A stretch of 29,814 bases of DNA from Gammaproteobacteria bacterium (lineage in GTDB: Bacteria > Pseudomonadota > Gammaproteobacteria > Pseudomonadales > Halomonadaceae), in NCBI GenBank assembly GCA_023485185.1, contig JAMCZP010000063.1, positions 1-29,814 of the forward strand, written 5' to 3'. A program made the position numbers and the translations under genes. Below are positions 11,146 to 29,623 of the stretch, piece after piece (the stretch's first letter is position 1; every line of letters starts with the position of its first letter). The notes below the pieces were generated by a model. The model saw only the letters and a list, made by a program, of their open reading frames with translations. It searched no databases and was not told the DNA's origin.

Positions 11146-11158
11146 TCCACAATGTGGA
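11146..11158. promoter_or_regulatory. 13-bp palindrome, candidate IclR operator
   Basis: TCCACAATGTGGA is a perfect odd-length palindrome that sits directly upstream of the cupin ribosome site, between the divergent cupin operon and the IclR gene. Its core ACAATGTG recurs at 11178-11185, 29 bases further on. Both copies would be downstream of, or overlapping, the best minus-strand promoter candidate. Binding by the divergent IclR protein is inference. Confidence 0.45.
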
Positions 11159-11190
11159 TAATAGCGTCATAATATGGACAATGTGTTATT

Positions 11191-11219
11191 AAGGTAAGTG
11201 GCGTGTCTGAATGCGTCAA
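11191..11219 (-). promoter_or_regulatory. Candidate promoter of the cupin-TTT-SDR operon
   Basis: On the minus strand, TTGACG (complement of 11214-11219) and TACCTT (complement of 11191-11196) are 17 bases apart. The -35 is good and the -10 is weak. Transcription would run into the palindromic elements at 11146-11188 before reaching the cupin start at 11135, a layout suited to repression by the divergent IclR protein. Confidence 0.3.
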
Positions 11220-11272
11220 TTGCCAGTGCCTAATTTGTGATTAGACATTCGTATGATATGCAGAGAGGGTTT

Positions 11273-12185: not shown

Positions 12186-13493
12186 CTAGACGTAGAAATC
12201 CAGGTCTTCTTGCGCTTTCAACAAGTCGCGCATGGTGATTGGGTCATCGCCAAAGAAGAACAGTAAGCCCCAATGCGTCCCGAAGGCCGACCGGTCTGGC
12301 ACTGTTTCTTCTGCAGGTGCGACCAGTTCGTGGGACTCGAAGTAGGGATGATTAATCGTTGCTTCGGGCATTTCTAGTTTGCTAACCACCCGACGGCGTG
12401 GGTACACACCGAAGCAACCTGCGTACCCCTTGGCGTCGACCACTTCGCGGGGGAAGAAGGCCGCCACTTCCTCTGGCGTGCTTTTCGGATCGAACACCAG
12501 CATTGACGCCTGATAGGCGTTGAAGCCGTAGGCTTTCTCGATCAGTTCAAACGCCTTGAAGCCGGGGGGACGGTAGGCCACCTCGCCAAAGTACATTTCA
12601 CCATCCGCCGTAACGAAGTACTCGGGGTGAATCAGACCAAACTGAATATCGAACGTTTTGATCAGTAGCTCGATCTGCTTGGTGATCGCGGGGCGCCAGC
12701 TTTCAAGTTCTGCAGTCGCAGGCACGAAAACCGAATAACCCAACGTCACGTATTCCGAAATGTTCAGGAACTGGATTTTGCCATCGTGAATCCAGGCCTC
12801 AACGGCGAACTCCCAGCCATCCAGGTGACTTTCCATCAGCAGGGGATATTCTTCGTCTGGAATGTTGTCGATCTCTTCTATCTTGCGAATCATTCGATGA
12901 CCAAGACAGCCAGCTTTATCGAATGCCTTGACGTGAATCGGATCGTCCGGGTCACCATCCAGTTTCAGCAGCGTTTGGTTAACGCGCTTCATAAAGCGAA
13001 CGATGTCTTCTTTCTCGTGTGCCTCTTCGAAGATCCCAACGCGAATCCCGCCAAGCTGAGCGCGGCGCTTCATCAGGGCCTTGTCACGGAACAGAATGGA
13101 TTGCCCGTACATACGTGGGCTGTCGAGAAGAACAGAGTTGATCGCACCGGACCACTCAACGGTTTCTTCAAATAGCGGAATGGCGATATCGACGCCTTCC
13201 TCTTTCAACCTTTCGGTAATCTCCATGGACCGATCATTCAAGCGGATAAAATCCCACGGTATAAAAGGAATGTTGTTTGCAGTACAGAAATCCGCGGCCC
13301 ATTCTGGAGCTACGACGATATATCGGCGGTCAAATTGTTGCGCAGCCTTAATGGCATTAACGCTCCAGCCCAGCAGGGCGATATAACCTTTGTTTGGATC
13401 CTTGGGGGCTTCGGTGCCTTTTACCGAGTCCATTTCCGGATCAAGCCAGGCCGCTACCGCTTCGGGTAATTGCTTTTCTGATGTGATCGACAT
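12186..13493 (-). CDS. ATP-grasp domain protein, substrate unknown
   Basis: A 435-residue enzyme of the ATP-grasp superfamily, which joins a carboxylate to an amine or other nucleophile through an acyl phosphate. The start MSITSEKQLP is fixed by AAGGAGG eight bases upstream; an in-frame extension to 13595 has no support. The N-terminal part (about 36-125) looks like a Rossmann-type preATP-grasp domain. HVKAFDKAG (187-195), ESHLDGWEFAVEAWIHDG (221-238) and the metal-site strand GEVAYRPPG (303-311) mark the ATP-binding fold. The last has Ala where many members have the Mg-binding Asn (ExNxR), resembling the PurK-type EIAPR. It is monocistronic with its own terminator, so neighbours give no pathway. 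Confidence 0.8.
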   Translation of the reverse strand: MSITSEKQLPEAVAAWLDPEMDSVKGTEAPKDPNKGYIALLGWSVNAIKAAQQFDRRYIVVAPEWAADFCTANNIPFIPWDFIRLNDRSMEITERLKEEGVDIAIPLFEETVEWSGAINSVLLDSPRMYGQSILFRDKALMKRRAQLGGIRVGIFEEAHEKEDIVRFMKRVNQTLLKLDGDPDDPIHVKAFDKAGCLGHRMIRKIEEIDNIPDEEYPLLMESHLDGWEFAVEAWIHDGKIQFLNISEYVTLGYSVFVPATAELESWRPAITKQIELLIKTFDIQFGLIHPEYFVTADGEMYFGEVAYRPPGFKAFELIEKAYGFNAYQASMLVFDPKSTPEEVAAFFPREVVDAKGYAGCFGVYPRRRVVSKLEMPEATINHPYFESHELVAPAEETVPDRSAFGTHWGLLFFFGDDPITMRDLLKAQEDLDFYV

Positions 13494-13792
13494 TCGATGT
13501 CCTCCTTGCTGGTTGACCCAAACCGACTGAGCAGAGATTGGAGCGCACCAAGTGAGCTGAGCTGCAGTCAGTAATAGGGAAGTGCTGTTGAGCAAGCCAG
13601 CATTAGAAAAGTTTTTAGCGCACCCGTCGTAACTAAACTAGTCGATACTGTTACAAATGGCAATTAAACTGTAGAATAGTTGTTGAATAGCTGTAGAAGT
13701 TTTTTGCTGCTCAGAAGAGGATTATTGGCTTTAATTGGATAGCTTCTAAATCAGAGAAATTTCATGTAGTGTTTTTTATTACTTATAAGCTA

Positions 13793-16512: not shown

Positions 16513-17376
16513 TTATCCAGAAGTCGAACGGCTCCTTTTAATTTGATACATATGGCTATCTGCATGGCTCAGCAGAGTGTCGGCATCTTCCCCATCTGCG
16601 GGATAACAAGCCACACCGATACTACAAGAGGGCATGCTAATATCGCCGAACTCAGTGCCTAATGGCTCGTTCATCACCATTAAAATTTGCTCAACTTTTA
16701 CCGTAATAATCTCCATAGACGGGATATCTGTTAACAGCACCGTGAATTCATCACCGCCCATTCGAGCTACGGTGTCTATGGCGCGTACACAGCTTTCCAG
16801 GCGCTTTGCTACCGTACAGAGCACCCGATCACCCATCGCATGCCCATAAGTATCATTAATAGCCTTAAAATCATTGATATCCAGGAACAGTAACGCCAAA
16901 TGATGCTGATGGCGTTGCGCCGAGCTTAAACTTGAAGACAATCGGTCATAGAAAAGTGATCGATTCGTCAGCTTTGTTAGAGGATCATGATGGGCGAGGT
17001 GACGTAACTCTTCTTCAGCTTGCATAAGCGCCGTTACATCCCGCGCGACACCAATTCTAACTTGTTCCTCTTCATACCAACGAGCAGACCATAGGATGTG
17101 AACGATGCCGCCATCCTTACGAAGATAACGATTGCGAAAATCGATATGGGGCTGACCGTTCATAACACGGTGAATGGAGTCGTGAGTAGCCGCTAGATCA
17201 TCAGGGTGCATATAACGGGTGATTGAGGTGCCAATCAACTCACAGGATAGATAGCCGAGCAATGACTCACAGGCATCGCTCACAAAGACAATCTGGTTTT
17301 CTTCATCGACTACGAAGACGGTGTCCAGCATTAGATGAATCAATTTTGGGTAGAGCGCTTGCAGGTCAATGGCCAT
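16513..17376 (-). CDS. PAS-GGDEF diguanylate cyclase
   Basis: A 287-residue signalling protein. Residues 10-120 are a PAS domain (LDTVFVVDEENQIVFVSDAC, followed by a PAC-like RYLRKDGGIVHILWSARW). Residues 125-287 are a complete GGDEF domain beginning at HHDPLTKLTNRSLF and ending in a normal MYQIKRS. The active-site motif GGDEF is intact at 207-211, and an RxxD inhibitory site (Arg198-Asp201) stands five residues before it, so the enzyme should make cyclic di-GMP with product inhibition. There are no membrane segments, so it is cytoplasmic. The PAS ligand is unknown. The start has a poor ribosome site. It is monocistronic, 261 bases from gdhA. Confidence 0.93.
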   Translation of the reverse strand: MAIDLQALYPKLIHLMLDTVFVVDEENQIVFVSDACESLLGYLSCELIGTSITRYMHPDDLAATHDSIHRVMNGQPHIDFRNRYLRKDGGIVHILWSARWYEEEQVRIGVARDVTALMQAEEELRHLAHHDPLTKLTNRSLFYDRLSSSLSSAQRHQHHLALLFLDINDFKAINDTYGHAMGDRVLCTVAKRLESCVRAIDTVARMGGDEFTVLLTDIPSMEIITVKVEQILMVMNEPLGTEFGDISMPSCSIGVACYPADGEDADTLLSHADSHMYQIKRSRSTSG

Positions 17377-17476: not shown

Positions 17477-18520
17477 TTAATTTTTTGACTCTTTTCGAAC
17501 CTGATAGGGCGTTTTTTTTGTCCAGCGTCTGAAAGCCCTGCGAAAATGCGCGCTGTCGCTAAAGCCTAGTCTCGTCGCGATATCGTCCATGTTCATTTTT
17601 GTTGTCACCAGATATTCAGTTGCTAACGTACAGCGGGCATCGTCAAGTATTGCTCTATAACTGCTCGCCTCTGCAGATAGTTTTCTTCTTAAAGTACGCG
17701 ATGTAATACACAATTGGTTTGCTACGGATTCCATATTTGGAAAGCTATTCGGGGACATCATGAGTATCTGATAAACCTCTCCACTAACACCGGATGACAT
17801 TTTGGTGCGGCCAAGTAACTGATTGCAGGTCTCTTGAAGTAATTTAATAGAAAGCTGGTTACCTAACAGGGGAGACTGGTCAAGAATTGATTGTGGGAAA
17901 TGTAGTTCATTTGTTTTTTGATTGAAGTGACATTCACAGCCTAAATAGTGCTCATGTATTTTCTCGACTCCCACACCCGAATAAGTTAGCAAGGCTTTTG
18001 TAGGTAACTGGGTTTTACCCACTACATCACGTATGTGCGTCACATTTTGTGCCATCTGCTGCTGTATCAGAAAATATTTTATTTTTATGTTTTTTATATA
18101 AGAGTGAATTTCTTTAAACTCAAAAATGGCAGACTCTTTTGTTTCTCTCCATGTCATATTTAATGTTGGCGTAGCTAAGGGGTGGTATTTTACTCCAAAA
18201 TTGAAGTAGTCCCTTATGGTCGGGCTTGAAAGAAGAGCGTATCCATACATTCCATATGCAGTTAAATGCAGTTTAGTGCCAGTCTCAAAAGGCGTTGAAA
18301 AGTTTACACCTGCTTCGATAGCGTTCTCGCAAGCGTCGATATACTGCTTTATCGAAACCAGTGTGCCTGGGTGCAGCAGTGCTTCCTGACTTAATCTAAT
18401 CCCTTTCAATATCACGCCAGCCGCAATTCCCTGCTCTGTGGCCGTGGTCACTAAAGCCGCAATTTTATAGGGTGAATAAATCTTTTTATTCAGCAGTTTA
18501 GGTTGGGTTTTTATCATCAT
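17477..18520 (-). CDS. AraC family transcriptional regulator, copy 1
   Basis: A 347-residue regulator with an N-terminal ligand-binding domain of the type found in OruR/ArgR-like AraC proteins (about 20-210; LHLTAYGMYGYALLSSPTIRD) and a C-terminal double helix-turn-helix (about 245-340; SVANQLCITSRTLRRKL and DIATRLGFSDSAHFRRAFRRWTKKTP). It is clearly a paralog of the regulator at 20783-21823, identical over long stretches such as SIKLLQETCNQLLGRTKMSSGV. The recognition helices are almost the same, so both should read the same DNA. It is divergent from the dehydrogenase and binding-protein genes and separated from them by a repeat-bearing regulatory region. The coding sequence is visibly more A/T-rich than copy 2, which suggests different ages or origins. 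Confidence 0.93.
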   Translation of the reverse strand: MMIKTQPKLLNKKIYSPYKIAALVTTATEQGIAAGVILKGIRLSQEALLHPGTLVSIKQYIDACENAIEAGVNFSTPFETGTKLHLTAYGMYGYALLSSPTIRDYFNFGVKYHPLATPTLNMTWRETKESAIFEFKEIHSYIKNIKIKYFLIQQQMAQNVTHIRDVVGKTQLPTKALLTYSGVGVEKIHEHYLGCECHFNQKTNELHFPQSILDQSPLLGNQLSIKLLQETCNQLLGRTKMSSGVSGEVYQILMMSPNSFPNMESVANQLCITSRTLRRKLSAEASSYRAILDDARCTLATEYLVTTKMNMDDIATRLGFSDSAHFRRAFRRWTKKTPYQVRKESKN

Positions 18521-18543
18521 GAATCTTTTTTGAATGTCCGAAA

Positions 18544-18600
18544 AAGGCCTCTTTAAGGCCGCTTTCGACCTTCCTCAGGGCGAGGATACCTTTGTAGAGT
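18544..18600 (+). promoter_or_regulatory. AraC-type direct repeats and activator-dependent promoter, copy 1
   Basis: Three direct repeats of the kind AAGGCC/TCGACC start at 18544, 18555 and 18565, that is 11 and 10 bases apart, one helical turn each. Twenty-four bases after the third repeat stands TAGAGT (18595-18600), the best -10 candidate; no good -35 precedes it. The same repeats, spacing and TAGAGT occur at 21851-21907. This suits an AraC activator bound over the -35 region. The rest of the sequence between the two divergent genes is also conserved between the copies. Confidence 0.6.
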
Positions 18601-18645
18601 AGCGCAACAAAACAAGGCTTCCAAAGCCCTATAATAAGGATTTCC

Positions 18646-19560
18646 ATGAACACTCCTGCCAAAGTATGTGTTGTTGGCGCCGGCCTAATGGGGCACGGAA
18701 TTGCGCAAACGTTCGCCCAGGCTGGGCACCCGGTTTCTTTGTTTGATGTTGACAAGAATACGCTTGAGCTTGCGCCACTGCTTATTGAGAGGAATCTTCG
18801 CCAAATGGGCGTAGAACCTAAACCGATACTCGATAATATAAAGTTATGTTCAGATGTTGCCAGCGCTGCCTTGTCAGCTGGCTTTATAATTGAAGCTGTC
18901 ACTGAAAACCTTTCCTTAAAGCAAACGTTGTTCGCTTTATTGGCAGAGCTAGCTCCTGAACATGCAATTCTGGCAAGTAATACTTCTGTTATACCCATTA
19001 CTGATATTGGTGAAAAACTAAGTGGGCCAGTGCGATCACGGCTTGTTGGTACACATTGGTGGAACCCACCCCATCTGATTCCGCTGGTTGAGGTTATCAA
19101 GACACCTTTCACTGACAATGCTGTTTTTGAAGCTACTTTCGATTTGATGCTGAGTATAGGTAAACAGCCTGTAAAAGTTTTTCAGGATGTGCCGGGATTT
19201 ATTGGTAATAGGCTTCAACATGCTATGTGGCGTGAAGCTTTATACCTGGTCTCAACGGGGGTATGTGATGCCGAAACAATTGATACTGTGGTCAAGAATA
19301 GCTTCGGTATGCGCATGCCTTTTCTTGGTCCCATGGAAAATGCAGATTTAGTGGGGCTTAAACTTATTCAGCAAGTTCATCAATTTATTTTTCCTCATCT
19401 TTGTAATGAGCAATCCCCAAGACCCATGATTGAAGACCTTATTAAACAAGGCTTCTTAGGCATGGAAAGTGGAAAGGGACTGCAAAACTGGCCCCCAGAA
19501 AAAGCGGAGAACGTGCGCAAGAATCTGAGCAATCGCCTCATTGATTCCTTAAAAGACTAA
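18646..19560 (+). CDS. 3-hydroxyacyl-CoA dehydrogenase family protein (NAD-dependent)
   Basis: A 304-residue two-domain dehydrogenase. The N-terminal Rossmann domain has VCVVGAGLMGHGIA (about 7-20) and the acidic LFDVD (32-36) that favours NAD. The catalytic pair appears as His137 in GTHWWNPPHLIPLVEV with Glu149, together with SNTSVIPI and DVPGFIGNR, followed by the all-helical C-terminal domain. True hydroxyacyl-CoA dehydrogenases, L-carnitine dehydrogenase and lambda-crystallin/gulonate dehydrogenase share this fold. The HWWNPPHLIPLVE form and the neighbouring transporter and BKACE gene suggest a free beta-hydroxy acid as substrate (inference). An AAGGA site lies five bases before the ATG. 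The gene is A/T-richer than the receptor gene downstream and is absent from the second module. Confidence 0.88.
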   Translation: MNTPAKVCVVGAGLMGHGIAQTFAQAGHPVSLFDVDKNTLELAPLLIERNLRQMGVEPKPILDNIKLCSDVASAALSAGFIIEAVTENLSLKQTLFALLAELAPEHAILASNTSVIPITDIGEKLSGPVRSRLVGTHWWNPPHLIPLVEVIKTPFTDNAVFEATFDLMLSIGKQPVKVFQDVPGFIGNRLQHAMWREALYLVSTGVCDAETIDTVVKNSFGMRMPFLGPMENADLVGLKLIQQVHQFIFPHLCNEQSPRPMIEDLIKQGFLGMESGKGLQNWPPEKAENVRKNLSNRLIDSLKD

Positions 19561-19630
19561 ACAACCGTAACGCCTGATTTCTACCCAACAATAAACTGAT
19601 TCAAGCTACTTTGATAAGGCAGGAAACAAT

Positions 19631-20740
19631 ATGAAAACTCAGAGCACCCTCACACTGACTGGCATCGCCGCCGGTATAGCACTTGCCTCCATTAGCACTT
19701 TCGCCCATGCGCAGGAGCAGTGGACCATGACCTCCACCTGGCCAGACAATATTGCGCTCATTGAAGTCGACCGCCACTGGGTGGAATTGGTCAATCAACT
19801 GGCCGGCGACGAGCTTGAAATTAACTTCCGCGCTGGCGGTACCCTGATGCCTGGCACGGAAGTGTTCGATGCCACCGAGACCGGCAGTATTGAGGCGGCT
19901 GGTGACTGGCCAGGTTACTGGGCAGGGGTCAGCCCCGCTTTCTCTCCATTGGCCTCCACGCCGAGTTTATTTAACGCCGCTGACTATCTTAATTGGATTA
20001 ACCAGTGGGGCGGCTGGGAGCTCTATCAGGAAGTCTACGGCCAGTTCAATATGGTCTATTTGCCCTACGGCATTCTCAATAATGAATCAGGTTTTATGGG
20101 CCGCACACCGATTGAAAGCATCGCTGATATTGACGGTAAGCGGTTGCGCCTTTCTGGTCGCGATCAGGGGCGAGTGCTTGAGAAACTGGGCGGGTCACAG
20201 GTAACGCTGGCGGGTGGTGAGGTTTACCAAGCAATTGAGCGCGGTGTGGTCGATGCGGGTGAGTTTTCTTCGCCTGGGGTGGATTACTCCGCTGGCTTTG
20301 CTGAAGTGGCCAACCATTGGTCCGTTCCCGGTTGGCACCAGTCTGCTAGCGTTTTTGGGGTAATGATCAATAAAGATGCCTGGGATGCCCTTTCCGAACA
20401 GACGCAAGAGAAACTGAAGACCGCCACCATGGCTACCATGGCTTGGTCATTGGCATGGTCCGAGCGGGAATCAACCGAAGCTACCCAGAAGTTTCTTGAT
20501 GCCGGTATAGCAATTCATCAGCTTCCCGAGGAGGATTTAGCGCGTATTCAGGAGATCACCAACGACGTCATCCTGCAGGGCGCTTGCGAAGATCCAATGC
20601 ACGCCAAGGTCTACCATTCCATGGTTAGCTACATGACACAATACGCGACCTGGCGTGATATCTCTGTGCCTTACAATATGAGCCGCGTTACCGATGACCT
20701 TCCTTCGCTGGAAGAACTTGAAACCTGCATGAACCAGTAA
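19631..20740 (+). CDS. TRAP transporter substrate-binding protein, copy 1 (no own permease)
   Basis: A 369-residue periplasmic receptor of the longer DctP class (TakP/SmoM-like), with a signal peptide ending at STFAHAQ. Conserved landmarks are WTMTSTWPDN at the mature N-terminus, GGTLMPGTEVFDATETG, DGKRLRLSGRDQGRVLEKLGG, LAGGEVYQAIERGVVDAGEF and PGWHQSASVFGVMINKDAWD. An AGGAAA-type ribosome site precedes the ATG. It is a close paralog of the protein at 22028-23137. No dctQ or dctM follows; a hairpin and a converging araC gene come next. It probably delivers ligand to the QM permease encoded 2.5 kb downstream. It lies 70 bases after the dehydrogenase gene, likely in one transcript. Confidence 0.93.
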   Translation: MKTQSTLTLTGIAAGIALASISTFAHAQEQWTMTSTWPDNIALIEVDRHWVELVNQLAGDELEINFRAGGTLMPGTEVFDATETGSIEAAGDWPGYWAGVSPAFSPLASTPSLFNAADYLNWINQWGGWELYQEVYGQFNMVYLPYGILNNESGFMGRTPIESIADIDGKRLRLSGRDQGRVLEKLGGSQVTLAGGEVYQAIERGVVDAGEFSSPGVDYSAGFAEVANHWSVPGWHQSASVFGVMINKDAWDALSEQTQEKLKTATMATMAWSLAWSERESTEATQKFLDAGIAIHQLPEEDLARIQEITNDVILQGACEDPMHAKVYHSMVSYMTQYATWRDISVPYNMSRVTDDLPSLEELETCMNQ

Positions 20741-20749
20741 GCAGAGCGT

Positions 20750-20777
20750 CTAGGTGGGCCTTAACAGGCCCGCCTAG
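20750..20777 (+). terminator. Hairpin between receptor copy 1 and araC copy 2
   Basis: Arms 20750-20761 and 20766-20777 pair over 12 positions with one G-T wobble and a TAAC loop. It lies nine bases after the receptor stop and six before the end of the converging araC gene, so it can end both transcripts. T runs are weak. A homologous hairpin follows receptor copy 2. Confidence 0.6.
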
Positions 20778-20782
20778 TGCGG

Positions 20783-21823
20783 TTAACTTTGCGACTCTTC
20801 GCGAACCTGATGGGGTGTTTTGCCCGTCCAGCGTCTGAATGCTCTGCGAAAGTTGGCGCTGTCGCTAAATCCCAATCTTGCGGCGATGTCTTCAGTGCTC
20901 ATTTTAGTCACCAGCAGGTACTCCGTTGCCAATGTGCAGCGGGCATCATCGAGTATTTCCCGGTAGCTGGTCAGCTCTGCATCGAGCTTTCTTCTTAACG
21001 TGCGAGTAGTGATGCAAAGTAAGTTGGCGACGGCTTCCATGGTGGGGAAACTGTTCGGAGACATCAGCAGTATTTGATACACCTCGCCGGTAACACCGGA
21101 TGACATCTTGGTGCGCCCCAGCAGTTGGTTACAGGTTTCCTGGAGTAGTTTTATCGATAGCTGGTTGCCTAGTATGGGGGATTGATCAAGTATCGATTTG
21201 GGATAGTGGATTTCGTTTACTTCTTGATTAAAGTAACAGTCACACAGTAAATATTTTTCATGTATCTGTTCAACATCTTTCCCTGAATAAGATAGCAGCG
21301 CCTTGATGGGAAATAGACTGGGGCCTGCAGCATCGCGAATATGGGTAATGTTTTGCGCCATCTGTTGCTGAATTAAAAAATTGCGGGTTTTGATACTGGT
21401 GATATACGAGTAAGTTTCTTTGAATTCAAACACGGCAGACGCGTCGGTTTCTCTCCATGTCATATATAACGTTGGCGTGGCTAACGGATGGTATTTCACC
21501 CCGAAACTGAAATAGTCCCGCATGGTGGGGCTGGTTAGTAGGGCGTAACCGTACATGCCATAAGCAGTTAAATGCAGCCGAGTGGCCGTCTCAAAAGGGG
21601 TGGCGAGATTAGCTCCTGCATCAATCACATTCGTGCAAGCGTCCACATACTGTTTGATGGAAACCAGTGTGGCCGGGTCCGCCAGCGCTGCCTGACTTAA
21701 GTTGAGCCCCCGTAAAACCTGATCAGCCGAAATTCCCTGTTCTGCTGCCGTATCCAGTAAAGCGGCGATTTTATAGGGGGCATATATCTTTTGATTCAGC
21801 AGGTTAGCCTGAAAACTGGCCAT
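20783..21823 (-). CDS. AraC family transcriptional regulator, copy 2
   Basis: A 346-residue paralog of the regulator at 17477-18520 with the same domain order: an N-terminal ligand domain (about 18-208; TPFETATRLHLTAYGMYGYA) and a C-terminal double helix-turn-helix (AVANLLCITTRTLRRKL; DIAARLGFSDSANFRRAFRRWTGKTP). Differences cluster in the ligand domain (for example residues 165-200) while the DNA-reading helices are almost unchanged. The two proteins may therefore respond to different effectors but bind the same sites. It is divergent from the dctP2-Q-M-SDR-BKACE-SDR operon and is its likely activator. Confidence 0.93.
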   Translation of the reverse strand: MASFQANLLNQKIYAPYKIAALLDTAAEQGISADQVLRGLNLSQAALADPATLVSIKQYVDACTNVIDAGANLATPFETATRLHLTAYGMYGYALLTSPTMRDYFSFGVKYHPLATPTLYMTWRETDASAVFEFKETYSYITSIKTRNFLIQQQMAQNITHIRDAAGPSLFPIKALLSYSGKDVEQIHEKYLLCDCYFNQEVNEIHYPKSILDQSPILGNQLSIKLLQETCNQLLGRTKMSSGVTGEVYQILLMSPNSFPTMEAVANLLCITTRTLRRKLDAELTSYREILDDARCTLATEYLLVTKMSTEDIAARLGFSDSANFRRAFRRWTGKTPHQVREESQS

Positions 21824-21850
21824 AAGTTGCTCTCAATGAAATGTCCGAAA

Positions 21851-21907
21851 AAGACCTCACGAAGACCGATTTAGACCTTCCTTGAACCTAGCGTAACTTT
21901 GTAGAGT
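21851..21907 (+). promoter_or_regulatory. AraC-type direct repeats and activator-dependent promoter, copy 2
   Basis: Repeats AAGACC (21851), AAGACC (21862) and TAGACC (21872) are 11 and 10 bases apart. TAGAGT at 21902-21907 follows the third repeat by 24 bases, exactly as in copy 1. It should drive the receptor-QM-SDR-BKACE-SDR operon. The transcript would have a leader of more than 100 bases before the receptor start at 22028. Confidence 0.6.
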
Positions 21908-22027
21908 AGCCTCACGCAATAATAAGGACTTGGCCGCAGAAACTAAGTGCAACACCTCAAATAATAGTGGCGGACAAACTTTACAACAAAAGCAGCTTAA
22001 AGCTGACGGTTATCGAAAGGAAAAAAC

Positions 22028-23137
22028 ATGAAAACGCAGCACGCCCTTATGCTCGCCGGATTCGCCATCGGTGCATCCTTGGTTCCCCTTAATGCTAGTG
22101 CCCAAGACCCGCAGAGCTGGACGATGACCTCTACCTGGCCTGAGAACATCGACGCGGTCAAAATTGATCGGCACTGGGCTGAGCTGGTTAACAAGATAGC
22201 CGGTGATGAGCTGCAGATTGAGTTCCACCCTGGCGGTACTCTGATGCCAGGCACGGAAGTGTTCGATGCCACCGAGACCGGCAGCATTGAAGCCTCGGGG
22301 GATTGGCCTGGCTATTGGGCGGGCCTAAATCCTGCTTTCTCGCCACTCGCGACAACAACCAGCCTGTTTAATGCTTTGGACTACTTCAACTGGATTCAAC
22401 AGTGGGGCGGTCGCGAGCTTTATCAAGAGATCTACGGCCAGTTTGGTTTGGTCTATCTCCCCTATGGCGTATTGAATAACGAATCTGGCTTTATGGGCCG
22501 CACGCCGATCGAGAGTATTGCTGATCTGGACGGTAAGCGGCTACGCATTGCCGGTCGTGACCAGGGGCGTGTGATGGAGCAGTTGGGTGGCTCCCAGGTA
22601 ACGCTTGCCGGTGGTGAGGTTTATCAAGCGATTGAGCGCGGTGTGGTTGACGCGGCGGAGTTCTCTGCGCCCGGCATTGATTACAGCGTTGGCTTGGCCG
22701 AAGTAGCGGACTACTGGGCGACACCCGGTTGGCACCAGTCTGCCACGGTGTTTGGTGTGATGATCAATAAAGACGCCTGGGATGCACTTTCCGAAGAGAC
22801 TCAGGAAATGCTTCAAATTGCTGCCGATGCCACCATGGGTTGGTCGCTTTCGTGGTCAGAAAGAGAATCAACGGATGCCACGCAAAAGTTCATTGATGCT
22901 GGCATTACCATCAATCAGTTCTCTGAGGAAGATTTGGCCCGTATCCAAGAGATCACCAACGAAGTAATTGTGCGCGGTGCCTGTGAGCACCCGGATCATG
23001 CCAAGGTTTACCACTCCATGATCAGTTACATGAAGCACTACGCAACGTGGCGTGATATTTCCGTGCCTTTCAATATGAGCCGCGTCACCAATGATCTTCC
23101 CTCGCTTGAAGATCTTGAGGCTTGCATGAACCAGTAA
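22028..23137 (+). CDS. TRAP transporter substrate-binding protein, copy 2
   Basis: A 369-residue periplasmic receptor, paralogous to copy 1, with a signal peptide ending near LNASAQ and the same landmarks (WTMTSTWPEN, GGTLMPGTEVFDATETG, RLRIAGRDQGRVMEQLGG, LAGGEVYQAIERGVVDAAEF, PGWHQSATVFGVMINKDAWD). Both copies end in CMNQ. The AGGAAAAAAC ribosome region is good. It is the first gene of the operon that also encodes dctQ, dctM and three enzymes. Substitutions relative to copy 1 near the pocket region (S to A in DAGEFSS/DAAEFSA, L to I in RLRLSG/RLRIAG) could change ligand preference. TakP-class receptors bind keto acids or related carboxylates; the ligand here is unknown. Confidence 0.94.
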   Translation: MKTQHALMLAGFAIGASLVPLNASAQDPQSWTMTSTWPENIDAVKIDRHWAELVNKIAGDELQIEFHPGGTLMPGTEVFDATETGSIEASGDWPGYWAGLNPAFSPLATTTSLFNALDYFNWIQQWGGRELYQEIYGQFGLVYLPYGVLNNESGFMGRTPIESIADLDGKRLRIAGRDQGRVMEQLGGSQVTLAGGEVYQAIERGVVDAAEFSAPGIDYSVGLAEVADYWATPGWHQSATVFGVMINKDAWDALSEETQEMLQIAADATMGWSLSWSERESTDATQKFIDAGITINQFSEEDLARIQEITNEVIVRGACEHPDHAKVYHSMISYMKHYATWRDISVPFNMSRVTNDLPSLEDLEACMNQ

Positions 23138-23145
23138 GCGGATTT

Positions 23146-23170
23146 GGGTGGGCCCTTAATGGGCCCATCT
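23146..23170 (+). terminator. Intercistronic hairpin between TRAP receptor and dctQ
   Basis: TGGGCCC (23149-23155) and GGGCCCA (23161-23167) form a perfect seven-base-pair core that extends to ten pairs with wobbles around a five-base loop. There is no T run, so it more likely attenuates or protects the 3' end of the receptor message, allowing more receptor than permease. It is homologous to the hairpin after receptor copy 1. Confidence 0.5.
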
Positions 23171-23229
23171 CGTCGACTTACTGTGACTTTAATGCCCTGC
23201 TTGAACTGACCTATTCCGAGATCCTCCTC

Positions 23230-23730
23230 ATGAATGCCATTGCCAGGGCCATCGATGCCCTTAACGAAGGATTCGGTCGCTTGATTGCCCCGCTTCTTGC
23301 CGTCATCACCATGATCGTCATCTACGATATTGCCATGCGTTTCTTGGCCGGGCGCCCGAGTGACTGGGCCTTTGATGTCACCAAAATGCTGTTTGGGGCC
23401 CACTTTATGCTGATGGCCGCCTATGCGTTACGACATCACGCTCATGTCGAGGTCGACGTGCTTAAGCGATTATTGCCGCGTCGTAAGCAGGCAGCTCTCG
23501 AGCTTCTCGGTTACCTGATCTTCTTCGTACCCTTTATTTGGCTGTTGATCACCTATGGCTGGGCATTCTTCGAACGCTCCTTCAGCCGCGGCGAGACCAC
23601 TTACGGCATGGTCTCGCTTCCCGTCTACCCCATTAAAGGGGTGATTATGGTGGCCGCCGTACTGATTTTGCTGCAGGCCGTCGCCATCGTGATCCGCGCC
23701 TCTCAGCAATTACGGGAGGAAGCCGCATGA
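23230..23730 (+). CDS. dctQ: TRAP transporter small permease DctQ
   Basis: A 166-residue four-TM protein starting at MNAIARAIDALNEG; an upstream in-frame ATG overlaps the receptor gene end and the hairpin and is unlikely. The family-typical segment IYDIAMRFLAGRPSDWAFDVTKMLFGAHFMLMAAYALRHHAHVEVDV is present, with hydrophobic segments near 17-40, 52-72, 88-112 and 135-155. The ribosome site is weak, so expression may depend on the preceding hairpin region. The stop overlaps the dctM start as ATGA. It forms the membrane unit with the next gene and probably serves both receptor paralogs. Confidence 0.92.
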   Translation: MNAIARAIDALNEGFGRLIAPLLAVITMIVIYDIAMRFLAGRPSDWAFDVTKMLFGAHFMLMAAYALRHHAHVEVDVLKRLLPRRKQAALELLGYLIFFVPFIWLLITYGWAFFERSFSRGETTYGMVSLPVYPIKGVIMVAAVLILLQAVAIVIRASQQLREEAA

Positions 23731-25061
23731 ACTTAAGCCCTGAACTACTCACGCTGGTGATGTTCGGCGGGCTGCTGATAGGTCTGTTTATGGGCCATCC
23801 GCTGGCCTTTGTGCTGGGCGGCGTCGCTGTGATTGGTGCTTTTCTAGGCCCCGGCGAGCGTGTGCTAGGCACCATCATCAACAACATTTATGGCAACTCC
23901 ATGGACAACTATGTCTTGGTGGCCATTCCTCTTTTCGTGCTGATGGCGCGCTTTCTCAACGACTCGGGCGTCACGGAGAAGATGTTTGAGGCGATGCGCT
24001 TGCTGTTAGCTAACCTGCGCGGTGGCCTAGCGCTGACCGTGGTTATTGTGTCAGTTCTGTTGGCTGCCACCACCGGCATCGTCGGCGCCTCGATTGCCGT
24101 GATGGGTATGATTGCGCTCGTTCCCATGCTGAAGCACTCCTATAACAAGGAGCTCAGTACCGGCGTTATCATGGCCAGCGGCTGCCTGGGTATCCTGATT
24201 CCACCTAGCATCATGCTGATCCTAATGGCCAGCTATTCGCCAGTCTCGGTGGGGGCGCTGTTCGCTGGCGCACTGGTGCCAGGGGTAATGCTAGGGGCGA
24301 TGTATGCGCTTTACGTACTGGTGATCTGCTATTTAAAGCCGAGCTACGGCCCGCCGGTACCGGCTGAAGAGCGCGCCCAAGTCTCCACCTCACAGCTCAT
24401 GGTGATGCTGCTTAAGTACGTGTTGCCGCCGATGGCACTGATCCTGGGTGTATTGGGTTCGCTGTTTGCTGGTATCGCCACGGCCACGGAGGCCTCGGCG
24501 ATTGGTGTCTTTATTGCGTTTATGCTGTTTCTGATCTTCGGTGACCGCAAACTCGCGACCTGCTACCGCACACTGATTGAGGCTAGCAAGACCACCACTA
24601 TGGTGATGCTGGTACTGGTGGGCGCAACCGCCTTTACCGGTGTTTTCTCACGCGGCGGCGGCATGCAGGTCATTCACAATGTCGTAATGGCCATGCCCGG
24701 CGGCACCGCTGGCGCGCTGATCCTAATGCTGTTCTTGGTCTTCATCCTTGGCATGTTTCTCGATTGGACCGGCATCGTGCTGCTTAGCTTCCCGATCATG
24801 CTGCCGATCGTCGCTGATATGGGCGTGGATGTGCTGTGGTTTGTGGTCATGGTGGCGGTGGTACTCCAGACCTCTTTCCTGACGCCGCCATTTGGCTATG
24901 CGCTGTTCTACCTCAAAGGCGTGGCGCCGCCTGGGGTCGAGACGCTTGATCTCTATCGCGCAGTGATCCCTTTCGTGGCGCTGATCTTACTGGCTTGCGT
25001 TCTGATGACCCTCTTCCCGGTGCTGGTGACAGGCCTGCCTGCAGTGTTAATGGGCAGATAA
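23727..25061 (+). CDS. dctM: TRAP transporter large permease DctM
   Basis: A complete 444-residue, 12-TM large permease. Landmarks include FMGHPLAFVLGGVAVIGAFL, LVAIPLFVLMARFLNDSGV, TGIVGASIAVMGMIALVPML, GCLGILIPPSIMLILMA, GIATATEASAIGVF and QTSFLTPPFGYALFYLKGVAPP, which belong to the longer DctM class that pairs with TakP/SmoM-type receptors. It starts inside the dctQ stop (ATGA), so the two are coupled. It is the only large permease in this cluster although two receptors are encoded. Sodium-driven import of an organic acid is the family function. Confidence 0.96.
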   Translation: MNLSPELLTLVMFGGLLIGLFMGHPLAFVLGGVAVIGAFLGPGERVLGTIINNIYGNSMDNYVLVAIPLFVLMARFLNDSGVTEKMFEAMRLLLANLRGGLALTVVIVSVLLAATTGIVGASIAVMGMIALVPMLKHSYNKELSTGVIMASGCLGILIPPSIMLILMASYSPVSVGALFAGALVPGVMLGAMYALYVLVICYLKPSYGPPVPAEERAQVSTSQLMVMLLKYVLPPMALILGVLGSLFAGIATATEASAIGVFIAFMLFLIFGDRKLATCYRTLIEASKTTTMVMLVLVGATAFTGVFSRGGGMQVIHNVVMAMPGGTAGALILMLFLVFILGMFLDWTGIVLLSFPIMLPIVADMGVDVLWFVVMVAVVLQTSFLTPPFGYALFYLKGVAPPGVETLDLYRAVIPFVALILLACVLMTLFPVLVTGLPAVLMGR

Positions 25062-25125
25062 ACCTAACCCTACGGCCTGCCTGCTATGGCAGGGCCAGCG
25101 CTAAGTTTCATGGAGTAAATAGATA

Positions 25126-25899
25126 ATGAAAGTGATTGAGAGTTTGATCCCCCGTTCAGGGCTCAGAGTATTGATTACCGCCGGGGCAAACGGCATCGGT
25201 CTGGCTATCGCTCAGGCCTTCCAAGAGGCGGGCGCCCATGTTCACGTTTGCGATATCGATGAACAGGCGTTGGCCGCACTGCCCGAAGGTATCACCTATA
25301 CCAACGCTGATGTCAGCCAAGAGGCCGATGTCGACCGGCTGTTTGAGGATGCCGCTCATTTAGGCGGGCTAGATGTGGTGGTGAATAACGCTGGCATCGC
25401 TGGTCCCACTGCTAGCATCGAAGATATCGATCCTGAGAGCTGGAACCGTACCATCAATATCAACCTCAATGGCCAGTACCGGGTGGCTAATCGAGCCACG
25501 CCATTGCTGCGCGAGAGCCAAGGGCTGCTGATTAACATGGCCTCGGTTGCTGGCCGCCTGGGGTTTGCTTATCGCACTCCTTACGCGGCGAGCAAATGGG
25601 CGATTGTTGGCTTTACCAAAAGTCTGGCCTGCGAGCTTGGCCCTGAGGGTGTGCGGGTCAACGCCATTCTGCCCGGTATTGTGCGTGGGCCCCGCATCGA
25701 AAAAGTCATCGCCGACCGCGCGGCTAAACGTGGCATCAGCTACGCCGAGATGGAGAAGGAGAACCTCTCAAAGGTCTCTATGCGGCGCATGGTTGAACCG
25801 ACTGACATTGCTGCCATGGCGCTGTTTTTGTCCGCCCCTGGCGGCGCCAATATCTCGGGCCAAGCGCTAAGCGTGTGTGCCAACGTCGAGACTATTTAA
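25126..25899 (+). CDS. SDR family NAD(P)-dependent oxidoreductase
   Basis: A 257-residue short-chain dehydrogenase. The nucleotide loop is AGANGIG (19-25), followed by acidic CDID (about 42-45), which suggests NAD. NNAG is at 87-90 and the catalytic set is Ser140, Tyr153 and Lys157 (YAASK). A GGAG site precedes the ATG. The insertion after the active site (AKRGISYAEMEKENLS) shapes the substrate pocket, and ISGQALSVCANVETI at the end departs from the usual DGG ending. It lies 64 bases after dctM and 46 before the BKACE gene, in one operon. It probably oxidises an imported hydroxy acid to the keto acid used by BKACE (inference). Confidence 0.92.
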   Translation: MKVIESLIPRSGLRVLITAGANGIGLAIAQAFQEAGAHVHVCDIDEQALAALPEGITYTNADVSQEADVDRLFEDAAHLGGLDVVVNNAGIAGPTASIEDIDPESWNRTININLNGQYRVANRATPLLRESQGLLINMASVAGRLGFAYRTPYAASKWAIVGFTKSLACELGPEGVRVNAILPGIVRGPRIEKVIADRAAKRGISYAEMEKENLSKVSMRRMVEPTDIAAMALFLSAPGGANISGQALSVCANVETI

Positions 25900-25945
25900 C
25901 TGGCTTCACGTTTTTTGCGTCACCCTACTTATAAGAGACACCTTC

Positions 25946-26878
25946 ATGGCTACCCAACGCAAAGTCATCATTACCTGCGCCTTAACCGGCGCCATTCATA
26001 CGCCTTCGATGTCACCTCACCTGCCGGTGACGCCGGAAGAAATTGCCGAGTCAGGCATTGCTGCCGCTGAGGCGGGCGCTGCTATCATCCATCTGCATGC
26101 CCGCGACCCGATTACCGGTAAACCGACTCAGGATCCGGCAGTTTTTGAGCGTATTCTGCCACGCATGAAGGGGGCCACTAACGCAGTCATTAACCTTACC
26201 ACCGGTGGCAGCCCGCATATGAGTGTGGAAGAGCGCATGCGTCCCGCCATGGAGTTTAAGCCCGAACTTGCTTCTATGAATATGGGGTCAATCAACTTTG
26301 GCCTGTTTCCTATGCTCAGTCGCTACGAGAGCTTCCAGCATGAGTGGGAAAGAGAGCATCTTGAGAACAGTCGTGACCTGGTCTTCAAGAACACCTTCGC
26401 TGATATCGAAAAGGCCATGACGCTGGGCGCAGCGAACGGCACCCGCTTTGAATGCGAGTGCTATGACATCGGTCACCTCTACAGCCTGCGCCATATGATG
26501 GATCGTGGCTTTATAGGAGGACGAGTTTTCGTACAGAGCGTGTTCGGTATTTTGGGTGGCATCGGGCCGCATCCCGAGGATGTTATCCACATGCGCCGCA
26601 CCGCTGACCGGTTGTTTGGAGACAGCTACGAGTGGTCCGTACTTGGCGCAGGAAGTAACCAGATGCGCATTGCTGCGCAGTCCGCCGCGATGGGCGGGCA
26701 TGTGCGGGTTGGGCTGGAAGACTCGCTGTGGCTATCGCCAGGCAAGCTCGCTGAAAGCAATGCCAGCCAAGTGACTAAGGTGCGTAAAATTCTCGAAGGG
26801 CTCTCTTTTGAGATCGCCACTCCCGATGAAGCGCGTGAAATGCTGCAACTGAAAGGAGCCAGCAACGTCGGCTTCTAA
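25946..26878 (+). CDS. BKACE family beta-keto acid cleavage enzyme (DUF849)
   Basis: A 310-residue TIM-barrel enzyme of the family that includes 3-keto-5-aminohexanoate cleavage enzyme (Kce). The reaction is beta-keto acid plus acetyl-CoA to acetoacetate plus a new acyl-CoA. The zinc site can be read: His49 and His51 in [17 protein letters not shown] and Glu258 in [26 protein letters not shown] and VLGAGSNQM are further family landmarks. The start [16 protein letters not shown] follows AAGAGA; an upstream in-frame ATG lies inside the preceding SDR gene. The specificity of each BKACE member depends on pocket residues; known ones act on dehydrocarnitine, keto-aminohexanoate and simple beta-keto acids. 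The match to this substrate is not determined. Confidence 0.93.
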
Positions 26879-26895
26879 GCACACAGGAATCAACG

Positions 26896-27657
26896 ATGAA
26901 TGTAACTAATAAAGTCATTGCGATTACAGGCGGCGCGAGCGGCCTTGGCTATGCCATGGCCGAGCGCTTAGGCAAGCAAGGCGCAACGCTGGCGCTGCTA
27001 GATAGAAATGCCGCTACGCTAGACGACGCTGTCTCCGCACTCGCGGCACAGGGAATAAATGCGCATGGCTTTCCGGTAGATGTGTCCGATGAGCAGTCAG
27101 TGATTGACGCATTTGCCGATATTGCTGATCGATTAGGTCCCGTGGAGGGGTGTGTCAATAACGCCGGTATTACCGACGACGCGCTGTTCATAAAAGCAAA
27201 AGACGGCGTGATTGCTAAGCGTATGTCGTTGGACGCTTGGAAGAGAGTGATTGATGTGAACCTGACCGGTGTTTTTCTATGTGGCCGCGAAGCCGCCAGC
27301 CAAATGGTGGAATCAGGGAAAGGAGGTGTCATCGTTAACATCTCGAGTATTTCTCGAGCGGGTAACATGGGACAAACCAACTACGCGGCAGCAAAAGCCG
27401 GAGTGCATGCGCTTACCGTAACGTGGGCAAAAGAGCTGGCCCAATACGGTATCCGCACCGGCACTGTCGCACCAGGGTTTATTGCTACCCCCATGACAGC
27501 TGCGATGCGCCCAGATATGTATGAAAAGATTGCGGGCGCGGTACCCCTCAAGCGGCTAGGTCAGCCCGATAATATTGCCCAGAGCGTCGCGTTTATTATT
27601 GAAAATGATTACTTCACCGGCAGAATTATTGAGTGTGACGGTGGTTTAAGAATGTAG
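26896..27657 (+). CDS. SDR family oxidoreductase, FabG-like
   Basis: A 253-residue short-chain dehydrogenase with TGGASGLG (11-18), LLDR (34-37, an acidic NAD-type position), NNAG (88-91), catalytic Ser150/151, Tyr163 and Lys167 (YAAAKAG), PGFIATPM and the classical C-terminus [10 protein letters not shown]. The closest general resemblance is to 3-oxoacyl-ACP reductase and 3-hydroxyacyl dehydrogenases with a long loop after NNAG. CAGGAATCAACG gives a normal ribosome site. It is 17 bases after the BKACE gene and last in the operon. It may act on the beta-hydroxy/keto acid pair or reduce acetoacetate released by BKACE; the direction is unknown. Confidence 0.92.
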
Positions 27658-27715: not shown

Positions 27716-27847
27716 CTTGGCTAAAAGTACCCTTTAAACCAATATTAACATTCAAAAAATATGCTTTATCACACAATATCGTATTGCAACGGGCTGATAT
27801 ATTAGTTGATCAAGGACTGATTTTCGTTGCTAAGTACGGATACGTTA

Positions 27848-29623
27848 ATGAATGCCCAAGAACAGGAGCGTCTGTTCGCACTCCGCCAGCTCAATTTGCT
27901 GGATACTCCCCCTAGTGAGAGCTTTGATCGGATTACGCGAATGGCCAGTCAACTTTTCGACTTGCCGATTTCTGCAGTGTCACTTACCGATGAAAACCGT
28001 CAATGGTTTAAATCCAGAGTAGGGGTCGACCATTGGGAGATTCCCCGTGAGACGGCTCCCTGTGCAGATGTGTGCACTACCTCGCAACCGCTTATTATTC
28101 CAGACCTGCTTATTTCTGATTGTTATCGCAATAGCTACTTAGCGAAGTCGGGCATCCGTTTTTATGCGGGTGCACCGCTAGTCACGCGGGAAGGCCATAC
28201 ACTGGGAGCGATGTGTGTACTGGGCACTGAACCACGTGAAGTGACAGAGCAGGAGCAGGCTACGCTTCGTGACTTGGCCGCCATGGTCATGGCGCAGATT
28301 GAGCTGCAGCACGCTTTTGGGCGGATTGACCCATTAACGGGCCTTTCCAACCGCAACCAGTTTGCTGAAGACCTGCAGGATATGGAGCGAGATAACCCCA
28401 ATGGCCCAAAAGCGGCGATGTTCACCGAGGTGGTCGATGCGCGTGAACTGAGAGTGCTTCATCGCACGATGGGCCCCACTTTTCTTGATGAACTAGCGCG
28501 AATAGCCGCTCGCTGCTTGCAACAGGTTATCAGCCCGGCCGTTAAGCTTTATTATCTTGGCAGCTGTCAGTTTGTACATCTGGTGGAGCGTATGAGCGAT
28601 GCTGCCTTGCTAGAGGAGGCGTTGCGACTGCGCCAAGCACTGCTGGGCTTGGCAGCTTCCCGTGAAGTTCCGGTGTTAGTGCATCCCACCATAGGTATTG
28701 CGCCATTTTATCTTGGCGCGTTAGCGGCTGGGGATGTGTTAAGAAGTGCCTTTGCTGCAGGCCTTGATGCTCGCTTGGCTGAAAAGGGGGCGGGGCTCTA
28801 TTCATCGGATATTGATGCCCATTACCAGCGGCGTTTTATTCTACTGAGAGACATTGAACAAGCGTTGGAACGCGACGATGAGCTGTACCTGGTTTTTCAG
28901 CCACGTATCTCACTTGATAGCGCGCAGTGCTCTGGCGTGGAAGCGCTGTTGCGCTGGCATCACCCAACGTTAGGCGAGGTTTCACCGGGCGAGTTTATTC
29001 CACTGATCGAAAACACGCCGATGGTTAAACCGCTCACACAGTGGGTGTTACGCCGCGCAGTTCGTCAGGCGGCAGCTTGGTACCAACAAGGCAAGAGGCT
29101 CCAGGTGTCGGTCAATGTATCGGCGACCAATCTAGAAGAAGAAGATTTTGCTGCACGACTATTAGATGAAATGGCGCGAATGGCATTGCCAAGCACTGCT
29201 ATCGAGGTAGAACTGACGGAAAGTGCCTTGGTTAGCCAGGGGCAGGAAGCCACTAACCAACTCGAAACACTCATCGCGGCAGGCCTGCGGATTGCCATTG
29301 ATGATTTCGGCACCGGCTATAGCAGCCTCTCCTATCTACACGAAATTCCTGCTCATACCGTCAAAATTGATCGCCGCTTCATCACCGATCTTAATCAGGA
29401 TGCGCGCGCCGAAACCTTGGTCAATTCGATGATCTCAATGGCTCATGACCTCGGCTACCGAGTGGTGGCCGAAGGGGTAGAAAGCGAGGCCGCCTACCAT
29501 CGCCTAGCCCAGTTGGGTTGCGATGAGATGCAGGGCTATTTTATCGCTAAACCGCTATTGCCAGAGGTATTTGAGAAGTGGCTAACGACTTCCTCGTCGA
29601 CCGCGTGGAAGCCCTCCTCATAA
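27848..29623 (+). CDS. GAF-GGDEF(degenerate)-EAL protein, probable c-di-GMP phosphodiesterase
   Basis: A 591-residue cytoplasmic signalling protein. A GAF domain (about 20-155) has LDTPPSESFDRITRMASQLF and ENRQWFKSRVGV. A GGDEF-like domain follows (about 160-310), where the catalytic GGDEF is replaced by LGSCQF, so cyclase activity is not expected. The EAL domain (about 330-585) keeps its active site: VEALLRW, the Asn of SVNVSATNL, VELTES, DDFGTGYSSLSYLH, VKIDRRFI and AEGVE. It should therefore hydrolyse cyclic di-GMP, possibly controlled by GAF ligand or GTP binding. The start is uncertain: ATG 27848 or an in-frame TTG at 27827 that has AAGGA ten bases before it. It is monocistronic. Confidence 0.92.
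   Translation: MNAQEQERLFALRQLNLLDTPPSESFDRITRMASQLFDLPISAVSLTDENRQWFKSRVGVDHWEIPRETAPCADVCTTSQPLIIPDLLISDCYRNSYLAKSGIRFYAGAPLVTREGHTLGAMCVLGTEPREVTEQEQATLRDLAAMVMAQIELQHAFGRIDPLTGLSNRNQFAEDLQDMERDNPNGPKAAMFTEVVDARELRVLHRTMGPTFLDELARIAARCLQQVISPAVKLYYLGSCQFVHLVERMSDAALLEEALRLRQALLGLAASREVPVLVHPTIGIAPFYLGALAAGDVLRSAFAAGLDARLAEKGAGLYSSDIDAHYQRRFILLRDIEQALERDDELYLVFQPRISLDSAQCSGVEALLRWHHPTLGEVSPGEFIPLIENTPMVKPLTQWVLRRAVRQAAAWYQQGKRLQVSVNVSATNLEEEDFAARLLDEMARMALPSTAIEVELTESALVSQGQEATNQLETLIAAGLRIAIDDFGTGYSSLSYLHEIPAHTVKIDRRFITDLNQDARAETLVNSMISMAHDLGYRVVAEGVESEAAYHRLAQLGCDEMQGYFIAKPLLPEVFEKWLTTSSSTAWKPSS

What the first reader, a model, noticed from the sequence alone, without database searches (positions are those of the whole stretch)
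17477..23170. Tandem duplicated araC-TRAP receptor module, one copy carrying an extra dehydrogenase gene
Two consecutive units share gene order, orientation, regulatory region and 3' hairpin. Only copy 1 contains a 3-hydroxyacyl-CoA-dehydrogenase-like gene, and only copy 2 has dctQM. A whole regulated receptor module has been duplicated and then specialised, a possible way to widen the substrate range of one transporter. The greater divergence in the AraC ligand domains than in their DNA-reading helices fits new effectors with shared target DNA.
Basis: partly seen in the sequence, partly recalled or inferred. Interest (0 to 1): 0.7.

Follow-up and report, generated by a model that had tools for sequence, protein, structure and literature searches.

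The report
Two-operon AraC regulon sharing one transporter
In a salt-loving bacterium, two neighbouring gene units carry look-alike regulators, look-alike DNA switches and look-alike nutrient-catching proteins but only one membrane channel, so they look like two parts of one nutrient-uptake-and-breakdown programme rather than two separate transporters; this is a variant of known biology.

Summary
Unit 1 (araC1–hadh–dctP1, 17477–20784) and unit 2 (araC2–dctP2–dctQM–SDR–BKACE–fabG-like, 20783–27657) share order, divergent orientation, a two-half-site operator and a 3' hairpin. The copies are old (dS 2.0–2.5; AraC 75%, DctP 77% identical). AraC1 and AraC2 belong to one Halomonadaceae clade, but their branching order is unresolved, and DctP1 groups with DctP2 in one tree and with ordinary "core" receptors in another. 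In-place duplication is not proven; a relative has unit 2 alone at the same site. The dehydrogenase is probably no extra: AraC and this HADH appear to share contigs in Pseudomonas and Burkholderiales, so unit 2 probably lost it. The "new effectors" argument fails its test (p = 0.17). Best reading: one AraC regulon in two operons, one DctQM serving two receptors. B. ethanolica has an araC-less hadh–dctP1 operon behind the same operator on another contig; B. lactosivorans has a QM-less receptor with a dctM scar. The substrate is not established.

The parts
17477..18520 (-). araC1: AraC-family regulator, arabinose-binding-type N-terminus plus HTH_18
   Evidence: Pfam PF12625 and PF12833 above cut-off; 75% identical to AraC2
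18536..18574 (+). operator of unit 1: two direct half-sites 21 bp apart (18536, 18557)
   Evidence: cross-species alignment A4
18646..19560 (+). hadh: single-domain 3-hydroxyacyl-CoA/3-hydroxyacid dehydrogenase-like gene
   Evidence: PF02737 and PF00725; best NCBIfam NF042925, below its cut-off; best PDB match 4om8
19631..20740 (+). dctP1: TRAP receptor without its own dctQM, TakP/LctP type
20744..20784 (+). hairpin after dctP1
   Evidence: -28.4 kcal/mol, z -4.62 for 20738-20785
20783..21823 (-). araC2: second AraC regulator
   Evidence: 99% identical to the single AraC at the same site in L001
21843..21881 (+). operator of unit 2: two direct half-sites 21 bp apart (21843, 21864)
   Evidence: alignment A4
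22028..23137 (+). dctP2: TRAP receptor with dctQM downstream
   Evidence: PF03480; 77% identical to DctP1
23146..23170 (+). hairpin between dctP2 and dctQ
   Evidence: -24.4 kcal/mol, z -4.62 for 23135-23180
23231..23730 (+). dctQ (ATG at 23231; the longer TTG ORF from 23122 overlaps dctP2 and the hairpin)
   Evidence: PF04290 on the long ORF; sequence read
23727..25061 (+). dctM
   Evidence: PF06808; TIGR00786 above cut-off
25126..25899 (+). SDR1: short-chain dehydrogenase
   Evidence: PF13561; NF009466 just above cut-off, 226.9 against 222
25946..26878 (+). BKACE: beta-keto acid cleavage enzyme (longest ORF starts 25877 GTG; ATG at 25946)
   Evidence: PF05853; NF053538 550 bits, cut-off 430
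26896..27657 (+). fabG-like short-chain dehydrogenase
   Evidence: NF006072 above cut-off

Best explanation
The two units are two operons of one small AraC regulon for uptake and breakdown of a 3-hydroxy (or 3-keto) carboxylate. AraC1 and/or AraC2 bind the same two-half-site operator and switch on (i) hadh-dctP1 and (ii) dctP2-dctQM-SDR-BKACE-fabG-like. Both receptors hand substrate to the one linked DctQM pair. HADH and SDR1 oxidise the 3-hydroxy group, and BKACE cleaves the resulting beta-keto acid with acetyl-CoA. Unit 1 is thus a receptor-plus-dehydrogenase operon of the same pathway, not a second transporter. Shown: gene content, shared operator, natural araC-less and QM-less variants. 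Inferred: DNA binding, receptor sharing, enzyme order and substrate class.
For: Operator: 9 sites at up to 3 mismatches in 8 of 8 genomes (pattern derived from these loci; backward-read control 0): one beside each araC, the ninth before the araC-less hadh-dctP1 operon of B. ethanolica on a different contig (no araC hit in the 17-kb stretch L027). B. ethanolica has one close DctM (E up to 1e-120) but two complete receptors of this family. B. lactosivorans has two receptors of this family and one close DctM; its contig C11 reads dctP 3' end - dctM scar (13 of 15 residues) - SDR1 - BKACE. Pathway link: HADH-like, SDR and BKACE genes recur together in a second Billgrantia locus (L126, L127) and in 4 of 6 plasmid regions opened. 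PMC6365646 (passages and section 11) reports SDR, BKACE, transporter, araC-family and HADH genes clustered in P. bryophila and important on deoxyribonate. PMC12599236 (passages) suggests that a TRAP receptor serves a non-cognate paralogous QM.
Against: No binding, expression or transport data. The window's own genome is not held, so a second DctQM elsewhere is likely and could serve DctP1. HADH may work on a CoA ester, as PMC6365646 suspects for its homologue, rather than feed BKACE. In the other HADH-BKACE clusters the HADH is distant (36-39% in Billgrantia and Caballeronia, 48-52% in Aminobacter and Azospirillum, where the SDR is 30-33%), and 2 of 6 plasmid regions (L130, L131) have BKACE with no HADH match. 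The B. lactosivorans contigs are not joined in the assembly; pairing rests on synteny. B. ethanolica's third receptor (L046) lies at a contig end, so a missing dctQM there is possible.
Confidence: 0.55

Rival explanations
1. Duplicate and specialise: in-place tandem duplication, then DctP1 and AraC1 evolved a new ligand and effector, widening the range of one transporter.
For: Both pairs are 75-77% identical; DctP1 and DctP2 clades are sisters at 99/98 in the 66-row tree; 15 fixed differences between the DctP1 (4 rows) and DctP2 (14 rows) clades.
Against: The AraC domain contrast is not significant; at 7 of the 15 sites only the DctP1 state is seen in 18 core receptors, against 2 for the DctP2 state, so DctP2 rather than DctP1 looks derived; candidate pocket positions do not differ.
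Confidence: 0.2
2. Unit 1 is a xenologue: it was gained from another Halomonadaceae lineage and landed beside a resident unit 2; no in-place duplication occurred. The mechanism of the best explanation would still hold.
For: L001 has unit 2 alone at the same site, with the flank homologous up to the junction. AraC1 branches in a trichotomy with the Vreelandella-type and Billgrantia AraC2s. araC1 and hadh are AT-richer (GC3 0.40, 0.39) than araC2 (0.53). Unit 1 is rare: this HADH in 2 of 275 family genomes at E up to 1e-90, an AraC1-clade AraC in none.
Against: A 10,581-base metagenome contig (inferred from equal contig lengths) holds AraC1- and AraC2-clade proteins, both DctP types and an HADH, so the paired set is not unique; loss of unit 1 in L001 explains the site equally. 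dctP1 and dctP2 have the same GC3, 0.60.
Confidence: 0.4
3. DctP1 works with the ubiquitous core DctQM encoded elsewhere, not with the DctQM of unit 2.
For: The core dctPQM is common in Halomonadaceae; DctP1 resembles core receptors as much as, or more than, DctP2 and groups with them in one tree; in B. lactosivorans the only close DctM has core-type flanks.
Against: Co-regulation by the shared operator puts DctP1 with unit 2; in B. ethanolica the only close DctM is that of unit 2.
Confidence: 0.3
4. Unit 1 mainly raises receptor and regulator dose for the same substrate; there is no change of specificity.
For: Same operator; candidate pocket residues invariant or nearly so.
Against: Saturated synonymous divergence with purifying selection on both copies (dN about 0.15, dS 2.0-2.5) suggests some lasting difference.
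Confidence: 0.25

Closest known systems
IctPQM/DctPQM of Pseudomonas aeruginosa (PMC12599236, passages seen)
   Same: Paralogous TRAP receptors; the authors suggest the non-cognate DctP serves IctQM, and call IctPQM a lineage-specific duplication with specialisation.
   Different: There the whole PQM was copied; here one receptor lacks QM, and regulator and operator are copied as well.
Oxidative deoxyribonate cluster of Paraburkholderia bryophila (PMC6365646, passages and section 11 seen)
   Same: AraC-family regulator, BKACE, transporter, beta-hydroxyacyl-CoA dehydrogenase and SDR in one cluster.
   Different: One cluster with a single transporter gene named in the passages (its type not stated there), no second regulator or receptor mentioned; its sequences were not compared here, so orthology is untested.
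TakP / LctP type TRAP receptors (PDB 2hzk/2hzl, 2zzv; 7ug8)
   Same: Best PDB matches of DctP1 by sequence, and among the top ten by fold.
   Different: 25-27% identity over the aligned fold; ligand of DctP1/2 unknown.
Several binding proteins on one ABC membrane complex (Thomas 2010, seen only as a reference in PMC12599236)
   Same: Many receptors to one membrane part.
   Different: ABC and not TRAP; not read here.

Membership tests
TRAP receptor, DctP family | PF03480 match over the mature protein | tested here: met
   DctP1 133 bits, DctP2 147 bits, cut-off 23.4
TakP/LctP-type receptor | closest solved structures and fold are the keto-acid and lactate receptors | tested here: met
   DctP1; DctP2 not searched or folded
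TakP/LctP-type receptor | binds a 2-oxo or 2-hydroxy acid with a cation | not testable with these tools
   no ligand assay
BKACE | PF05853 and an equivalog above cut-off | tested here: met
   358 bits; NF053538 550 bits against 430
Complete TRAP transporter (unit 1 alone) | own dctQ and dctM | tested here: not met
   hadh, dctP1 and hairpin only, before the convergent araC2
Oxidative deoxyribonate cluster | AraC, BKACE, HADH, SDR and transporter together | tested here: met
   gene types all present within 17477-27657; gene content only
Oxidative deoxyribonate cluster | orthologous SDR and BKACE; growth on deoxyribonate | not tested
   P. simiae and P. bryophila sequences were not obtained; no phenotype
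In-place tandem duplication | both gene pairs are sister clades in a consistent history | tested here: inconclusive
   DctP sisters 99/98, broken in a 47-row set; held together they cost 3.5 log units, AU p 0.42; AraC sisters 91/81 in 58 rows, trichotomy in 21 rows

The most novel reading that the evidence does not exclude
TRAP transport in Halomonadaceae is modular: one DctQM pair serves a changing set of receptors that plug into an AraC regulon through a common operator. Operons such as hadh-dctP1 can sit beside or far from the DctQM, lose their own regulator (B. ethanolica) or shed dctQM leaving a scar (B. lactosivorans), contrary to the usual one-receptor-one-membrane rule for TRAP systems.
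Probability: 0.4. Interest if true: 0.55.

Novelty: new variant of a known kind. Interest (0 to 1): 0.36.

Why it matters
Interactions between receptors and membrane parts are described as usually unique (PMC12599236, passages). A natural series of full unit, araC-less receptor operon, QM-less receptor with a dctM scar, and tandem makes receptor sharing in TRAP systems directly testable, and gives a compact operator for reading this regulon in other genomes.

Tried and rejected
Looked for whole-genome context of the window: none held. Searched more distant genomes for the HADH: 0 of 390 (order) and 0 of 369 (class) at E up to 1e-100; these draws contained no known positive, and only up to six candidates per listed genome were scored, so they show little. 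HADH in plasmid records: 26 records, all under 60% identity. BKACE in plasmid records: 160. I opened 2 of the 26 and 4 of the 160: four regions (L122, L123, L129, L132) have HADH-like, BKACE and SDR-family genes, two (L130, L131) have BKACE without a HADH match. Rejected: HADH as an insertion specific to copy 1; ligand-domain divergence as evidence of new effectors; a simple sister-clade story for the receptors (DctP1 looks mosaic between L027-like and core-like stretches). The sigma-70 scan gave fewer sites than shuffles (2 against a mean of 7.2) and the terminator scan did not list the two hairpins. No Rfam family at gathering score and no tRNA in the window. PADLOC on two upstream genes gave an NYN match and a weak HEC-09 match for one, nothing for the other. 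Literature searches for two TRAP receptors on one membrane pair gave PMC12599236 as the nearest that I opened; only listings were seen for the others except passages of PMC5812351, PMC9007349 and PMC11961710. The library lacks most subscription journals, so this is no proof of absence. Deoxyribonate as the substrate was considered and left as a lead.
Full report
What is there. The window carries two consecutive units in the order araC (minus strand), operator, then plus-strand genes ending in dctP and a hairpin. Unit 1 is araC1 | hadh–dctP1; unit 2 is araC2 | dctP2, followed by dctQ, dctM, SDR1, BKACE and a fabG-like gene. End-to-end alignment finds two collinear blocks of 72.7% and 74.6% nucleotide identity. 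Proteins are 75% (AraC) and 77% (DctP) identical. dS is saturated (2.5 and 2.0) and dN about 0.15, so the copies are old and under purifying selection.

Shared control region. Upstream of each araC lies a direct repeat of two half-sites, 21 bp apart, and the block is conserved in all eight rows aligned, two from the window and six from relatives. Scanning eight genomes with a pattern derived from it gave nine sites at up to three mismatches, and none for the pattern read backwards. Eight sit beside an araC. The ninth, one mismatch, is in Billgrantia ethanolica, upstream of a hadh–dctP1-like operon with no araC match in the 17-kb stretch fetched, on a different contig from the genome's single matching araC. 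That is the strongest evidence that the operons form one regulon by operator.

Distribution. Of 275 Halomonadaceae genomes, 8 hold an AraC matching AraC1 at E up to 1e-90, all 8 of the AraC2 clade, and 2 hold this HADH; up to 8 candidates per listed genome were scored. So the window's tandem was seen in none of the 275. Of 80 receptor loci kept out of 251 found, 4 have an araC2-type gene next to the receptor and 1 has this hadh. In 71 of the 80 a tmcA-like gene (name recalled, not from a call) lies in the fetched stretch, mostly just upstream of an araC-less "core" dctP; it is missing from the four araC2 loci and from L027. MAG HyVt-328 (L001) has unit 2 alone at the same chromosomal site as the window's tandem; the left flank is homologous up to the junction. 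Gain in the window or loss in L001 cannot be told apart. Equal contig lengths point to one metagenome contig of 10,581 bases with two AraCs, one HADH and two DctPs; P0128 groups with AraC2, P0132 with AraC1 on a long branch, P0242 with DctP1 and P0326 with DctP2.

Trees. AraC1 and AraC2 lie in one Halomonadaceae clade (100/100) with Pseudomonas AraCs outside; within it the AraC1 rows are sister to the 17 AraC2 rows at 91/81. In a 21-row tree AraC1, the Vreelandella-type AraC2s and the Billgrantia AraC2s form an unresolved trichotomy. For the receptors the 66-row tree gives DctP1 and DctP2 clades as sisters at 99/98, but a 47-row tree puts window DctP1 with the core receptor of H. korlensis (90/83) and L027 with DctP2 (98/94). 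Holding the 18 DctP1 and DctP2 rows together costs 3.5 log units (AU p 0.42); holding the four DctP1-clade rows with the 21 core rows is rejected (p 0.017), and the DctP2 set with the core rows is not (p 0.128). Windowed identities suggest a mosaic dctP1. I therefore do not claim a clean whole-module duplication.

The dehydrogenase. Sixteen contig lengths recur between the 120 AraC and 120 HADH homologues listed (of 426 and 7914 hits; read by eye, equal length taken as same contig), including contigs named Pseudomonas and Noviherbaspirillum; eight are under 14 kb. The HADH tree has the same main groups as the AraC tree, as far as rows are named: Halomonadaceae, Pseudomonas, Burkholderiales. 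B. lactosivorans (G072, named through P0021 on a contig of the same length) has hadh and dctP beside an AraC of the AraC2 clade. The simplest reading is that AraC–HADH is the older pairing and that unit 2 lost hadh.

One membrane pair, several receptors. Unit 1 has no dctQM. B. ethanolica has one DctM at E up to 1e-120, that of unit 2, but two complete receptors of this family (L094, L027) plus a nearly complete one at a contig end (L046). In B. lactosivorans four contigs end inside dctP: C44 (araC–hadh–dctP start), C3 (tmcA-like–dctP start), C45 (dctP end–dctQ–dctM) and C11 (dctP end–SDR1–BKACE). Between dctP and SDR1 on C11 is a short dctM remnant, 13 of 15 residues identical to window DctM. 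The first 124 bases of C11 and C45 are 96.8% identical, which would explain the assembly breaks and points to recombination between the two receptors. The tmcA-like gene marks C3 as core, and the 1.5 kb beyond dctM on C45 matches 6 of 7 core loci and 0 of 5 araC-unit loci tested (blastn), so C3 pairs with C45 and C44 with C11. If each 3' end belongs to one of the two 5' ends, one of two receptors has no QM of its own under either pairing, and the genome has one close DctM.

Function. DctP1 is of the TakP/LctP kind. By alignment to TakP, likely pocket positions (their pocket role is recalled) E152, R173, E211, F212, H236 and Q237 are the same in DctP1 and DctP2 and invariant or nearly so across 42 receptors, so any change of specificity would be subtle. 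BKACE passes NF053538. HADH-like, SDR-family and BKACE genes recur together in a second Billgrantia TRAP locus (L126, L127) and in 4 of 6 plasmid regions opened; the HADHs are 36-39% identical in Billgrantia and Caballeronia and 48-52% in Aminobacter and Azospirillum, where the SDR is only 30-33%; two further regions have BKACE alone. PMC6365646 (passages and section 11) describes the same gene types in the deoxyribonate cluster of P. bryophila. I take a 3-hydroxy or 3-keto carboxylate as the substrate class (likely) and 2-deoxyribonate as one candidate (about 0.2).

The AraC ligand domain is 130/185 and the HTH domain 61/77 identical, Fisher p 0.17; five of the six other pairs compared (AraC1–P0133, AraC2–P0133, AraC1–P0131, AraC2–P0126, AraC2–P0128) lean the same way, and AraC1–P0122 the other.

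Verdict. The most economical mechanism is one AraC regulon in two operons around one TRAP membrane pair. This is a new variant of known kinds (duplicated receptors, regulon by shared operator); its interest lies in the natural series of variants.

Noticed in passing
L126 7914-11843; L127 8475-14009: A second TRAP cluster in B. lactosivorans and B. ethanolica with a distant DctM (28-29%), SDR1 (86-87%), another HADH-like gene (38-39%) and a BKACE (86-88%).
   Followed up: partly
L125 1-124 and L134 3391-3514 (reverse): The 3' ends of two dctP genes in B. lactosivorans are 96.8% identical over 124 bases, as if recently recombined.
   Followed up: partly
L096 13310-17059 (same as L002): dctQ, dctM and BKACE of Halomonas olivaria TYRC17 match in several pieces; either frameshift errors in the assembly or broken genes.
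   Followed up: no
window 16513-17376 and 27827-29623: The locus is flanked by a PAS-GGDEF gene and a GAF-GGDEF-EAL gene, both c-di-GMP signalling types.
   Followed up: no
window 12186-13595: 469-aa ORF with only a sub-threshold ATP-grasp hit; no NCBIfam hit at 1e-15 and no PADLOC hit.
   Followed up: no
window 7567-11219: TctA and TctC tripartite tricarboxylate transporter genes with a ChrR-type cupin gene beside them, and an IclR regulator at 11237-12055 on the other strand.
   Followed up: no
P0132 (contig of 10,581 bases): AraC1-clade protein on a very long branch (1.19), perhaps a decaying copy in a second locus with both units.
   Followed up: no
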